DNA of 64,000 bases, from the NCBI RefSeq assembly GCF_036170895.1, contig NZ_CP108036.1, positions 3,844,001 to 3,908,000 on the forward strand, in the 5' to 3' direction. How positions within the stretch are numbered: the first letter of the stretch is position 1; each line of letters starts with the position of its first letter. This document shows, one piece after another, positions 41,079-51,373 of this stretch. The DNA is from Streptomyces erythrochromogenes. GTDB taxonomy: Bacteria; Actinomycetota; Actinomycetes; Streptomycetales; Streptomycetaceae. Made by a program: the position numbers and the translations under genes. The notes beneath the pieces are model-generated. The model worked only from the letters and a program-made list of their open reading frames with translations, had not been told where the DNA came from and searched no databases.

Positions 41079-42416
41079 GTGCACGATGCATATGACGTCC
41101 TCTGTGTGGGATACGGACCCGCGAACGTCGCCGTCGCCGTTGCGTTCGAGGAGCTGTGGCCGCAGGCCCGGGTGAAGTTCCTGGAGCGCGAGCCCGGCCC
41201 CTACTGGCAGCGCGCCATGCTCCTGGACGGATCGGACATCCAGAACAATCCGCTGCGCGACCTGGTGACGCCGCGCAACCCGCGCAGCCGTTACACCTTC
41301 ACCAACTTCCTGCACGAGCAGGGCCGTCTCTTCAAACACCTCAACCTGCCCTCCCACTATCCGCTGCGCAAGGAGTACGCGCGCTACGTCCAGTGGGTCG
41401 CCGAGACCGTGCAGGCCGACGTGGACTACGGCCGCGAGGTCACCGGCATCAAAATGGACAGCTCCGCCGACGGCCCCCTGGTCGAGGTCACCGTCGCCGA
41501 CGGCACGACCTACCACGGGCGCTCCGTCGTGGTGGCCCCGGGCCGCACCCCGAACGTTCCCGCCGTCTTCGGCGACGTGCCGGCCCCGCACCTCTTCCAC
41601 ACCTCCCAGTTCCTGCCCAACATCGCGGACCTGGAGCGGGACTTCGACGGCACGCTCGCCGTGGTCGGCGCCAGCCAGAGCGCGGTCGAGGTGGTGCTCG
41701 ACCTGATCGCGCGCTTCCCCGCCGCCCGCATCACCAACGTGATGACCGGCTTCGGCTACCGCCTCAAGGACACCAGCCCGTTCTCCGAGGAGGTCTACTT
41801 CCCGGAGTTCGTCGAGTACTACTTCCACGCCACGGAGGAGGGCAAGAAGCGGCTGCGCGACCAGCTGCGGCCCACCAACTACTCGGCCGCCGACGCGGAC
41901 GTGGTCAGCGCCCTCTACATGCGCATGTACGAGGACGAGCTCGACGGCCGCGAGCGGATCCGGCTGGCCACCAACCGCCGCATCGAGTCCGTGGAGCGCA
42001 CCGCCGAAGGCGTGGCGCTGGACGTCACCGAGCACATCACCGGTGAGCGCGAGCGGATCCACGCCGACCGGGTGGTCCTGGCCACCGGCTACCTGGACCT
42101 GGGGATAACCGGCCGCACCGAGCAGCTCCCGCCGCTGCTCAGGGACCTGGCGGACGTGCTCGGCGTGACCGACGACCAGCCTCTGTCCGTCGGCTACGAC
42201 TACGGCGTGGTCCCGCACCCGGCCTTCGAGCGCGAGGTGCCGCCGATCTTCGTCAACGGGCTGTGCGAGTCCACGCACGGGCTCGGCGACGCGGGCTCCT
42301 TCAGCCTGCTGGCGCTGCGCTCCCAGGCCATCGTCGAAAGCCTTGAGCGGCGCCTGGTCGCCGAGCAGGGAACTGCCGACCTCGTCGCCGCCCAGGCGGC
42401 CGGCTCCGAGATCTGA
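41079..42416 (+). CDS. FAD-dependent N-hydroxylating monooxygenase (SidA/IucD/PvdA family)
   Basis: A 445-residue flavoprotein of the lysine/ornithine N-monooxygenase family, which hydroxylates a side-chain amino group with FAD, NADPH and O2. FAD-binding GYGPANVAVAVAFEE at the start, the family block DLVTPRNPRSRYTFTNFLHE (about 63-82), NADPH-binding VVGASQSAVEV (about 196-206) and ATGY near residue 340 are all present. GTG at 41079 has TTGGAG 7 bases upstream. Known members act on lysine, ornithine, cadaverine or putrescine; here the next gene makes a diaminobutyrate-type amine, so N4 of 2,4-diaminobutyrate is a plausible substrate (inference). Confidence 0.9.
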   Translation: MHDAYDVLCVGYGPANVAVAVAFEELWPQARVKFLEREPGPYWQRAMLLDGSDIQNNPLRDLVTPRNPRSRYTFTNFLHEQGRLFKHLNLPSHYPLRKEYARYVQWVAETVQADVDYGREVTGIKMDSSADGPLVEVTVADGTTYHGRSVVVAPGRTPNVPAVFGDVPAPHLFHTSQFLPNIADLERDFDGTLAVVGASQSAVEVVLDLIARFPAARITNVMTGFGYRLKDTSPFSEEVYFPEFVEYYFHATEEGKKRLRDQLRPTNYSAADADVVSALYMRMYEDELDGRERIRLATNRRIESVERTAEGVALDVTEHITGERERIHADRVVLATGYLDLGITGRTEQLPPLLRDLADVLGVTDDQPLSVGYDYGVVPHPAFEREVPPIFVNGLCESTHGLGDAGSFSLLALRSQAIVESLERRLVAEQGTADLVAAQAAGSEI

Positions 42417-42427
42417 GAGAGACGATC

Positions 42428-50200: not shown

Positions 50201-51373
50201 GTCGACCGCGCCGCCCTGCCCGAGCCGGACGGCGCCGCGGACGCGGGCGACTACGTCGCCCCGCGCACCATCCTGGAGACGGTCCTCGCCGACATCGTCT
50301 CCGACATCCTCAAGCTGCCGCGGGTGGGCATCGAGGACAACTTCTTCGAGATGGGCGGCAACTCCCTGCAGGCGATGCAGGTCATCACCCGCCTGCGCAA
50401 GGACCTCGGGGTCGACACGGACGTGACCGCGATCTTCCTCGCCCCCACGCCCGCCCGGCTCGCCGCGACCCTGGTCGCCAAGCACGGGCTCGAGGACGCC
50501 CCGCTGGACGACCTGGAGGGCCTCGACGAGGCGGAGGGCGCGGCCGAGCCGGGCACCGCGGCGGTCGGAAGCACTGCCGTCTCCGGTTCGGACACCATCG
50601 TGCCGCTGTCGGAGAAGACCGACGGCGACCCGCTGTTCCTCATCCACGCCGTCGGCGGCACCGTCTACCCGTACTTCGGGCTGATGCAGGAACTCCAGGA
50701 CCGCTACCGGGTGCTCGGCGTGCAGGCTGCGGGCCTGCGGGCCGGCAGCGAGCCGAGGCAGGACCTTCAGGAGATGGCGGACGCGTACACCGCGGCCGTC
50801 CGCGAGGCCCAGCCGTCGGGCCCGTACCGCCTGGCCGGCTGGTCGATGGGCGGCCTGCTCGCCCTCCAGGTCGCCCGCCGCCTGGAGGCGTCGGGTGCGC
50901 AGGTGGCCCTGGTCGGCCTGCTGGACACGCCCTTCTCCGCGGACGACGTCTCCGGTGTGAGCGAGCAGGCCTTCGCCGCCCAGTTCGTACTGGACGGCGC
51001 CCGGGCCCTCGGCCCCGACGCGGGCGAACTGCCCGACCCGGTGACCACGCCGGTGGCCGAGCAGCTGCGCTGGTTCGGCGAGAAGCTGACCGGCGGAGCG
51101 GGTGACACCGAGGAGGTCCAGGAGGACATCAACCGCAGGTTCCAGGTGTTCAAGGCGCACATCACGCTGATCGGCGGACACCGCCCGGAGCCCGTAGCGG
51201 CCCCGGTCGTGGTGGTCTCGGCCGAGCAGTCCCCGGACCTGTCGGCGCTCTGGACCGAGCTCCTCGGATCCGGCACCCGGACCGTCCGCGTGCCCGGCGA
51301 CCACTACACCTTCCTGCGCGCCCCCGGCGTCCAGCAGGCCGCCAAGGCTCTCCTCGGCGCGGACGAGCACTGA
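47282..51373 (+). CDS. single-module NRPS, C-A-T-TE
   Basis: A 1363-residue non-ribosomal peptide synthetase with one module. Condensation domain, about 30-440, with active-site HHTVFDG at about 165-171; adenylation domain, about 485-960, with YVIYTSGSTGRPKG, INGYGPTETTVGS and LPLNANGKVDRAAL-type ending (NGKVDRAALPEP); carrier domain with S1028 in FFEMGGNSLQAM; thioesterase about 1115-1363 with S1188 in GWSMGG. By eye alignment with GrsA the pocket residues read about D-V-L-C-V-A-G-V-G, which I cannot assign to an amino acid. The C-A-T-TE layout is that of EntF, which works iteratively with release by its TE. ATG at 47282 has AAGGA 10 bases upstream. Confidence 0.95.
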   Translation: MLTDSQRAALTARLRRTAPPISSIPRRSPALQDLPLSYGQEQLWFIDQLAPGESTYTIAGAVRMTGALDRPALGAALDSLVARHEALRTRLVTVDGAPVQVVDPAGPVELAFLDQRSVAADEIEQHWRAAAQEETARPFELERGPLFRAHLQQLADEDHVLLITVHHTVFDGSSFPVLLAELSESYAGAVAGTAAQLPELPVQFADFAVWERDRLQGETLKELTDYWSENLQGAPVLQLPTDRPRPLVQTYQGTTESRDLGDKILTRLTTLGRDEGATLFMTLMAAYHVLLHRYSGQDDIVVGTVSANRSRPELQPVIGYLINTLPVRVDLSGDPTFREVLERTKAASLGAFGHQDLPFAKIVEAAKAPRDPSRSPVFQVGFMLSDDQKRDLRPGGMTWASEELPAEAAKFDLLVSAVESSGRLGLNLSYATALYDAATAQRLLGHFETLLDGVVNDPGARISQLPIMTEAELHQELVTWNSDKADFPDWNLHQAFEAKVAAHPDVMAVELDGEGLTYAQLDAHANQVARRLRELGVGPEALVGVSMQRTVRRIVGLMGILKAGGGYVPLDPEYPADRLAFMVEDAKMSVVLTDEASASAVPTEDVTVLDLDRSWNELTALDDSPVEATASPSDVAYVIYTSGSTGRPKGVVVEHRNAVNFCYAEIEFWPLGPGDRILQFASLNFDVSVLDIFGALLSGSTLVLGSTQTLLSPPRLADLIRGEGITFMCLPPAVLNLLAEEQFPSLRVVIAGGEAFSSELVRNWARPGMRFINGYGPTETTVGSTMARCQDDGIDPPPIGLPLTNYTAYVLDKHLNPVPVGVAGELHIGGASVTRGYLGRPELTAERFVTDPFSEVPDARMYKTGDLARRLPDGNLQYLGRLDHQVKIRGLRVELGEIEAVLAAHPSVAQAIIIVGEDQAGQKNLIGYARANPDAPAVTTADLRAHLGEALPAFMVPAHLIILDTFPLNANGKVDRAALPEPDGAADAGDYVAPRTILETVLADIVSDILKLPRVGIEDNFFEMGGNSLQAMQVITRLRKDLGVDTDVTAIFLAPTPARLAATLVAKHGLEDAPLDDLEGLDEAEGAAEPGTAAVGSTAVSGSDTIVPLSEKTDGDPLFLIHAVGGTVYPYFGLMQELQDRYRVLGVQAAGLRAGSEPRQDLQEMADAYTAAVREAQPSGPYRLAGWSMGGLLALQVARRLEASGAQVALVGLLDTPFSADDVSGVSEQAFAAQFVLDGARALGPDAGELPDPVTTPVAEQLRWFGEKLTGGAGDTEEVQEDINRRFQVFKAHITLIGGHRPEPVAAPVVVVSAEQSPDLSALWTELLGSGTRTVRVPGDHYTFLRAPGVQQAAKALLGADEH

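What the first reader, a model, noticed from the sequence alone, without database searches (positions are those of the whole stretch)
41079..51373. NRPS cluster built around diaminobutyrate, N-hydroxylation and a MetA-like acyltransferase
Aspartate kinase plus DABA-type aminotransferase give 2,4-diaminobutyrate; the SidA-type enzyme could hydroxylate its side-chain nitrogen; the MetA-like enzyme could acylate the result; an EntF-like C-A-T-TE protein could oligomerise and cyclise it, and an EntS-like MFS export it. A hydroxamate or N-oxy amino acid built on DABA would be new to me. There is no ferric-siderophore uptake gene and I see no iron box, so a SARP-controlled metabolite rather than a plain siderophore is favoured.
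Basis: inference. Interest (0 to 1): 0.85.

Follow-up and report, generated by a model that had tools for sequence, protein, structure and literature searches.

The report
Diaminobutyrate hydroxylamine NRPS cluster with recruited MetA
A six-gene Streptomyces cluster, whose three core genes recur together in other actinomycete genera, likely hydroxylates the side-chain nitrogen of 2,4-diaminobutyrate, is predicted to acylate it with an enzyme apparently recruited from methionine synthesis, and would link the resulting new building block into a still unknown small peptide.

Summary
The six genes are real, one tight co-directional run (41079-51373) inside a block shared with three related Streptomyces. 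The N-monooxygenase is not a lysine or ornithine enzyme: its clade (100/100 with its sisters) has Arg60/Glu237 where those have Lys/Asn, and sister genes lie near diaminobutyrate (DABA) transaminases in 4 of 6 loci examined. Published enzyme Apy11 already makes N4-hydroxy-DABA. What is new is the next step: in place of the sisters' MetRS/cupin hydrazine synthetase stands a diverged acetyl-type MetA (homoserine acetyltransferase) with an intact Cys-His-Glu triad. MetA-like, monooxygenase and a single-module C-A-T-TE NRPS recur together in Jidongwangia and Saccharothrix. The A-domain pocket is uncharged and identical in 13 of 13 orthologues, but matches no known code. The cluster's aspartate kinase lacks a stretch of the regulatory region. 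No iron box lies in the window, although the genome has a perfect one near another monooxygenase. Best reading (inferred): DABA, N4-hydroxy-DABA, N4-acetyl-N4-hydroxy-DABA, NRPS oligomer. N-N bond formation through an O-acetyl leaving group is not excluded. Substrates and product are untested.

The parts
41079..42416 (+). flavin N-monooxygenase (445 aa), predicted L-DABA N4-hydroxylase
   Evidence: PF13434 291 bits; clade and Arg60/Glu237
42428..43807 (+). class-III aminotransferase, diaminobutyrate--2-oxoglutarate transaminase type (459 aa)
   Evidence: PF00202 313 bits; PRK06938 503 bits (cut-off 671), TIGR00709 400.9 (cut-off 401.6); best solved relative by sequence is a DABA transaminase, 6rl5
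43804..44622 (+). MetA-like acyltransferase (272 aa), predicted hydroxylamine acyltransferase
   Evidence: PF04204 182 bits; Cys119-His212-Glu214 and Glu88 conserved; model TM 0.86 to 2h2w and 0.83 to 2vdj, query-normalised
44639..45892 (+). aspartate kinase lacking a stretch of the regulatory region (417 aa)
   Evidence: TIGR00657 306 bits, over cut-off 208.7; alignment to the other copy in the genome
45909..47207 (+). MFS transporter, probable exporter
   Evidence: PF07690 127 bits; TIGR00900 212 bits, under cut-off 319.6
47282..51373 (+). single-module NRPS, C-A-T-TE (1363 aa)
   Evidence: HHxxxDG, GGNS, GWSMGG motifs; 13 orthologues 60-98% identical over 98-100% of the length
37514..40699 (-). 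SARP/AfsR-type regulator (BTAD, NB-ARC, TPR), divergent from the operon; inside the conserved block
35442..37400 (-). B12-binding radical SAM C-methyltransferase (rSAM_ocin_1 family); inside the conserved block, membership in the pathway uncertain
   Evidence: TIGR03975 589 bits, over cut-off 281.85
34774..35328 (-). DUF5825 protein, beside the radical SAM gene; membership uncertain
   Evidence: PF19142 197 bits at residues 668-850 of the open frame 34774-37329
51450..51482 (+). terminator-like hairpin after the NRPS, at the right edge of the conserved block

Best explanation
This operon likely makes an N4-acyl-N4-hydroxy-2,4-diaminobutyrate (a DABA hydroxamate, most likely acetylated) and would string copies of it together on a single-module NRPS. 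Steps: an aspartate kinase freed from feedback (inferred) feeds aspartate semialdehyde; the transaminase makes DABA (inferred from family); the monooxygenase hydroxylates N4 (well supported, untested); the MetA-like enzyme, descended from an acetyl-type homoserine acetyltransferase, acylates the hydroxylamine, directly on N or on O with transfer to N (inferred); the A domain loads the neutral product (inferred); the C and TE domains join two or three copies and release them as a chain or ring (inferred); the MFS exports it (inferred).
For: Monooxygenase: 15 sampled clade rows form one branch (100/100), joined to the 21 sister rows by a 100/100 branch, apart from KtzI, PvdA, SidA, MbtG. The SidA Lys107 position is Arg in 46 of 47 clade rows (one gap) and 74 of 74 sister rows; Asn293 is Glu in 47 of 47 and Glu/Asp in 68 of 74; PMC7347517 (passages) reports Lys107 and Asn293 as ornithine-binding. 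A DABA transaminase lies near the sister monooxygenase in 4 of 6 loci: adjacent in L054, L055 and (as read, in two frames) L084, about 5 kb away in L021; none in L022, L023. Apy11 makes N4-hydroxy-L-DABA (PMC11705231, passages). MetA-like: on contigs of 5 kb or more, 16 of 23 MetA-clade rows share the longest-contig length of a monooxygenase-clade row, against 0 of 36 outgroup MetA rows. Catalytic Cys/His/Glu and Arg226 are invariant in all clade rows with a residue there. Its closest outgroup (41-42%) sits beside O-acetylhomoserine sulfhydrylase in L012 and L013, so the ancestor is an acetyl-type MetA. NRPS: pocket D-V-L-C-V-A-G-V-G in 13 of 13 orthologues, with no acidic residue beyond the constant Asp for a charged side chain; 6 of 13 share contig length with the monooxygenase clade, 4 of these also with MetA. 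Aspartate kinase: a regulatory segment of the other copy is missing or replaced.
Against: No activity was tested. The transaminase in L021 scores as an ectoine EctB and may serve another pathway. The solved 5cqf, annotated as a lysine enzyme, shares the Arg but keeps Asn. The cluster's clade lies among several sister lineages whose order is unresolved. No other NRPS module or carrier was recognised in the block, and how one C-A-T-TE module oligomerises is not shown. The A-domain code matches no known code: of those I read, a serine code (DVWNVAMVHK) shares 6 of 10 positions and piperazate and hydroxy-aspartate codes share 5, so serine or a cyclic N-N amino acid cannot be excluded. Nearly fixed changes in the MetA-like clade (Pro to Ala, Phe to Ala, Tyr to Thr) may mean a larger acyl group. 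The monooxygenase model is poor at two stretches near the active site.
Confidence: 0.5

Rival explanations
1. The MetA-like enzyme O-acetylates N4-hydroxy-DABA to make a leaving group, and N2 attacks N4 to give pyrazolidine-3-carboxylate, the five-ring homologue of piperazate, which the NRPS uses.
For: Sister-type monooxygenases feed N-N bond formation through an ester on the hydroxylamine oxygen (PMC11705231, passages; MetRS-family matches in L021, L022, L055; a MetRS-like frame in L084). MetA normally acylates an oxygen. The code DVLCVAGVGK shares D, V, V, A, K with piperazate codes DVFSVAAYAK and DVFTVAAYAK (PMC5031334, PMC9866976, passages).
Against: No KtzT, cupin or other N-N enzyme among the nine genes recognised in the block. 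Five of ten shared positions does not discriminate: a hydroxy-aspartate code shares 5 and a serine code 6, a proline code 5 (recalled). O-acetyl hydroxylamines pass readily to hydroxamates (general chemistry, recalled).
Confidence: 0.12
2. The MetA-like enzyme acylates homoserine, not the hydroxylamine, and supplies a second precursor; hydroxylated DABA is used free or elsewhere.
For: The triad and the conserved Arg226, Lys140 and Glu88 are kept, so homoserine could still bind. Aspartate kinase would also feed homoserine.
Against: No homoserine dehydrogenase, MetB or MetY among the nine genes recognised in the block. The clade separates from its MetA outgroup with nearly fixed changes and tracks the monooxygenase. 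One A domain offers room for one main substrate.
Confidence: 0.13
3. The hydroxylamine is released as a monomeric ring (a cyclic hydroxamate such as 3-amino-1-hydroxypyrrolidin-2-one) or a dipeptide ring by the thioesterase, with acylation as activation or protection; the product is a small antimetabolite.
For: A single module, no iron box, no uptake gene recognised in the block, a SARP next door.
Against: A C domain with its HHxxxDG motif is kept, which a monomer ring would not need.
Confidence: 0.12
4. An ordinary hydroxamate siderophore cluster on ornithine or lysine.
For: Family-level name of the monooxygenase and the names of its relatives in public records.
Against: Tree and residue positions; DABA-type genes; no acyltransferase of the usual kinds recognised; no iron box.
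Confidence: 0.03

Closest known systems
Actinopyridazinone and related hydrazine-synthetase clusters (Apy11/Apy9; MetRS-cupin)
   Same: DABA N4-hydroxylation by what looks like the same kind of monooxygenase; DABA transaminase nearby in several sister loci
   Different: No MetRS or cupin recognised here; a MetA-like acyltransferase and a single-module NRPS take their place
Vicibactin (VbsO/VbsA/VbsS) and other peptidic hydroxamate siderophores such as coelichelin (Vbs gene roles recalled)
   Same: Logic: N-hydroxylate, acylate, join on an NRPS with a thioesterase
   Different: Ornithine versus DABA; a different acyltransferase family; no iron box or uptake genes recognised in the block
Homoserine O-acetyltransferase MetA (HTS family)
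   Same: Fold, Cys-His-Glu triad, acetyl-type Glu
   Different: No methionine genes beside it; far under the equivalog cut-offs; nearly fixed changes against its outgroup
Piperazate (KtzI/KtzT) clusters
   Same: Side-chain N-hydroxylation before NRPS use; partial code likeness (5 of 10)
   Different: No KtzT recognised; DABA not ornithine; monooxygenase in another clade
Enterobactin EntF
   Same: C-A-T-TE single module
   Different: No aryl carrier partner recognised; A-domain code differs; 473 bits against a cut-off of 2400

Membership tests
Peptidic hydroxamate siderophore cluster | Ornithine or lysine N-monooxygenase | tested here: not met
   Arg60/Glu237 and tree position outside KtzI, PvdA, SidA, MbtG
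Peptidic hydroxamate siderophore cluster | Hydroxylamine acyl- or formyltransferase of a known kind | tested here: not met
   None among the nine genes recognised in the block by Pfam; a MetA-like enzyme is there instead
Peptidic hydroxamate siderophore cluster | Iron-box control | tested here: not met
   0 in the 64 kb window at up to 3 mismatches; 18 strand-wise hits at 11 places in the genome, a perfect one 1.5 kb from another monooxygenase gene
Peptidic hydroxamate siderophore cluster | Product binds iron | not testable with these tools
   no product known
Hydrazine synthetase (MetRS-cupin) cluster | N-monooxygenase of this superclade | tested here: met
   100/100 branch with L021, L022, L023, L054, L055; Apy11 itself not in the tree
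Hydrazine synthetase (MetRS-cupin) cluster | MetRS-like and cupin proteins | tested here: not met
   no such domain in the nine genes recognised in the block
MetA homoserine O-acyltransferase | HTS fold and Cys-His-Glu triad | tested here: met
MetA homoserine O-acyltransferase | NCBIfam equivalog cut-off | tested here: not met
   148.2 of 460.5 (acetyl), 142.1 of 495 (succinyl); but two outgroup MetA beside sulfhydrylase genes also score under it, 231.7 and 231.6
MetA homoserine O-acyltransferase | Acts on homoserine | not testable with these tools
   assay needed
Diaminobutyrate transaminase | TIGR00709 cut-off | tested here: inconclusive
   400.9 of 401.6
Piperazate cluster | KtzT-type N-N enzyme | tested here: not met
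   none among the nine genes recognised in the block; each matches another family; small unassigned frames were not searched

The most novel reading that the evidence does not exclude
A methionine-pathway acyltransferase has taken the place of the hydrazine synthetase: it esterifies the hydroxylamine oxygen of N4-hydroxy-DABA, the ester leaves, and an N-N bond closes to pyrazolidine-3-carboxylate, a new NRPS amino acid and a new, metal-free, two-enzyme route to an N-N bond.
Probability: 0.11. Interest if true: 0.85.

Novelty: new variant of a known kind. Interest (0 to 1): 0.62.

Why it matters
It points to a DABA-based hydroxamate (or N-N) building block that none of my literature searches showed (open-licence PubMed Central papers only), and to a new job for the MetA family. 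The gene set recurs in Streptomyces, Jidongwangia and Saccharothrix, so one assay on two small enzymes would settle a whole family of unassigned clusters. A published rule for finding peptidic metallophores keys on ornithine or lysine monooxygenases and needed extra constraints to keep N-N pathways out (PMC12971057, passages), so such clusters may be miscalled or missed (inference).

Tried and rejected
Lysine/ornithine siderophore: rejected by tree and residues. MetA-like enzyme as a plain methionine gene: disfavoured by co-occurrence and context. A-domain code as proof of a piperazate-like substrate: rejected as proof, since a serine code shares more positions. Wide genome search for distant orthologous clusters found only near relatives: 2 of 392 same-genus genomes (one the window's own; E up to 1e-60), 1 of 394 class genomes (own; 1e-50), 0 of 22, 0 of 341 and 0 of 35 in three unnamed families (1e-30), and in 333 genomes of one order only MetA at 30-34% in 5 genomes (1e-15); so the company kept in distant clusters was inferred from equal longest-contig lengths. 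Plasmid search with the MetA-like protein: 46 records, all under 60%; the 20 listed are MetA at 36% or less. Structure model of the monooxygenase: too weak at residues 233-240 and 397-406 to use. Four of 19 comparison loci gave no readable monooxygenase frame and were dropped (L026, L032, L034, L045). The tree used 51 chosen rows, not all 120 listed.
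Full report
What is there. The window lies in an 8.6 Mb genome of two contigs, a Streptomyces by its near relatives. Six genes in one direction, with gaps of 11, -4, 16, 16 and 74 bases, encode a flavin N-monooxygenase, a class-III aminotransferase of the diaminobutyrate (DABA) type, a MetA-like acyltransferase, an aspartate kinase, an MFS transporter and a C-A-T-TE NRPS. A terminator-like hairpin follows. Upstream and divergent lie a SARP with NB-ARC and TPR domains, a B12-binding radical SAM protein of the rSAM_ocin_1 family and a DUF5825 protein. 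These relatives are too close to show which of the three upstream genes belongs to the pathway.

The monooxygenase. Of the 120 relatives listed, 46 are 62-93% identical, then there is a gap to about 55%. In a tree of 51 chosen rows its 15 sampled clade members form one branch (100/100) and join the 21 sister rows on another (100/100), though the order of the lineages inside is open; KtzI, PvdA, SidA, MbtG and four other monooxygenases of this genome (L001-L004) lie outside. 5cqf, annotated as lysine 6-monooxygenase, is on a long branch at the base of this side. At the SidA Lys107 position the clade has Arg in 46 of 47 rows (one gap) and the sisters Arg in 74 of 74; at Asn293 the clade has Glu in 47 of 47 and the sisters Glu or Asp in 68 of 74; Asn323 and Ser469 equivalents are kept in all. 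In the 12 rows of ornithine/lysine type by the tree (MbtG, KtzI, PvdA, SidA, L003, L004, L027-L031, L033) the first two are Lys and Asn; 5cqf has Arg and Asn. Mutations of these residues hurt ornithine binding or catalysis in SidA (PMC7347517, passages). The sisters were picked by likeness to this protein, which can inflate such agreement.

Why DABA. In six sister loci read as DNA, a DABA transaminase gene lies beside the monooxygenase in L054 (Mycetohabitans), L055 (Xenorhabdus) and L084 (Vibrio halioticoli; as read, in two frames), and about 5 kb away in L021 (Streptomyces G067; this one scores as ectoine EctB and may serve another pathway); none was found in L022 and L023. MetRS-family matches are in L021, L022, L055 (only the last over a cut-off) and a MetRS-like frame in L084, as in hydrazine pathways. 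The actinopyridazinone enzyme Apy11 turns L-DABA into N4-hydroxy-L-DABA and does not take lysine (PMC11705231, passages). So the hydroxylation step has a precedent, and the finding's 'new to me' applies only to what comes after. The cluster's aspartate kinase is 43% identical to the only other copy found. In its regulatory half the other copy's segment with QNVS is missing and the GVNIELISTSEI segment is replaced; from what is known of Corynebacterium aspartokinase (recalled), this should weaken feedback control. A second transaminase elsewhere in the genome is 47% identical to the cluster's; its role was not examined.

The MetA-like enzyme. Pfam HTS is unambiguous and the AlphaFold2 model (pLDDT 93) matches solved homoserine acyltransferases, TM 0.86 to 2h2w and 0.83 to 2vdj. 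The triad Cys119, His212, Glu214, and Arg226, Glu88 and Lys140 are invariant in all clade rows with a residue there (49 or 50 of 50 rows including the query). Glu88 stands where acetyl-type MetA have Glu and E. coli has Gly (rule recalled). The next relatives held as DNA, 41-42% identical, sit beside O-acetylhomoserine sulfhydrylase in L012 and L013; a third, L014 (35%), shows no such neighbour in its frames and was not scanned by family. So an acetyl-type MetA was recruited (inference). Against the 71 outgroup rows the clade has nearly fixed changes: His to Arg (49 of 49), Pro to Ala next to the Glu88 motif (48 of 49), Phe to Ala (49 of 50), Tyr to Thr (47 of 50). On contigs of at least 5 kb, 16 of 23 clade rows share a longest-contig length with the monooxygenase clade, against 0 of 36 outgroup rows, and 0 of 23 match the sister monooxygenases.

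The NRPS. Thirteen full-length orthologues (1350-1393 aa, 60-98% identical) were taken from the 120 listed. Six of 13 share contig length with the monooxygenase clade, four of these with MetA as well, among them Jidongwangia harbinensis and Saccharothrix ecbatanensis, which are also named in all three lists; seven found no partner. The pocket residues, read by hand with GrsA numbering (recalled), are D-V-L-C-V-A-G-V-G in 13 of 13, with the final Lys read in the query only. Beyond the constant Asp there is no acidic residue for a charged amine, which suits a hydroxylamine or its acyl derivative. But no published code matches: of those I read, a serine code in tistrellabactin synthesis (DVWNVAMVHK) shares 6 of 10, piperazate codes and a hydroxy-aspartate code 5, and a hydroxyornithine code (DAEDTGRISK) 2 (passages). 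HHxxxDG, the carrier serine and the thioesterase serine are present. The thioesterase's solved relatives include EntF.

Iron. At up to three mismatches from the iron-box consensus, the window has none, while the genome has 18 strand-wise hits at 11 places with a reversed-pattern control of 0, including a perfect one 1.5 kb from the monooxygenase gene at 5.29 Mb. No uptake gene is among the nine genes recognised in the block. Iron-starvation control is therefore unlikely; this does not exclude an iron-binding product.

Reading. Shown: the genes and their spacing, the clades, the residue changes, the co-occurrence by proxy, the invariant pocket, the missing iron box. Inferred: every substrate, the order of steps, oligomerisation, export and regulation. 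I commit to hydroxamate formation by the MetA-like enzyme (0.50). Hydroxylation of DABA alone I would put near 0.85. The N-N reading is kept at about 0.11-0.12 because sister-type pathways use an ester on the same oxygen for exactly that purpose.

Known or new. N4-hydroxy-DABA is known; hydroxamate NRPS logic is known; my searches showed no paper with a MetA-family enzyme in such a role (searches returned no paper; two searches returned 10 and 3, of which I looked at passages of PMC9854754 and PMC11705231; one search found 204, of which I saw the first 15 as a listing). The held library lacks most subscription journals. Hence a new variant of a known kind.

Noticed in passing
51763-51837 (minus strand): A tRNA-Thr gene lies 0.3 kb right of the conserved block. 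In G042 only an 85-base piece of this stretch (51721-51805) is found, followed in the 11.6 kb fetched by DNA without a match to the window, with a frame that looks (by eye) like a type I restriction modification subunit; the site may be an insertion hot spot.
   Followed up: partly
34774-37400 (minus strand): A B12 radical SAM C-methyltransferase of the RiPP-maturation family beside a DUF5825 gene, inside the conserved block; it may be a separate RiPP pathway or a C-methylation step of this one.
   Followed up: partly
24622-29456: A 973-aa protein without any Pfam or NCBIfam match is followed by two Imm49 immunity proteins, as in a polymorphic toxin locus.
   Followed up: no
14773-21868: EccD-like and YukD domains, a CbiA-type ATPase and a 1189-aa frame without family suggest a type VII-like secretion locus.
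   Followed up: no
55093-58347 (minus strand): A 1084-aa frame joins a long N-terminal part and a charged, alanine-rich C-terminal part to a dTMP kinase.
   Followed up: no
L055 and L084: Xenorhabdus and Vibrio halioticoli plasmids carry similar gene sets (MetRS-like, GNAT, A domain, rhodanese-like, monooxygenase, DABA transaminase) that look like DABA hydrazine pathways (L084 read by eye from its frames).
   Followed up: partly
L021:9114-11767: Two N-monooxygenase genes stand side by side in this Streptomyces locus (48% and 38% identical to ours).
   Followed up: no
P0242-P0245: Two-module NRPSs from unnamed contigs (three of them 3.0-4.2 Mb long) are 55-57% identical to this NRPS over 77-79% of its length, with a similar pocket in both modules.
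   Followed up: no
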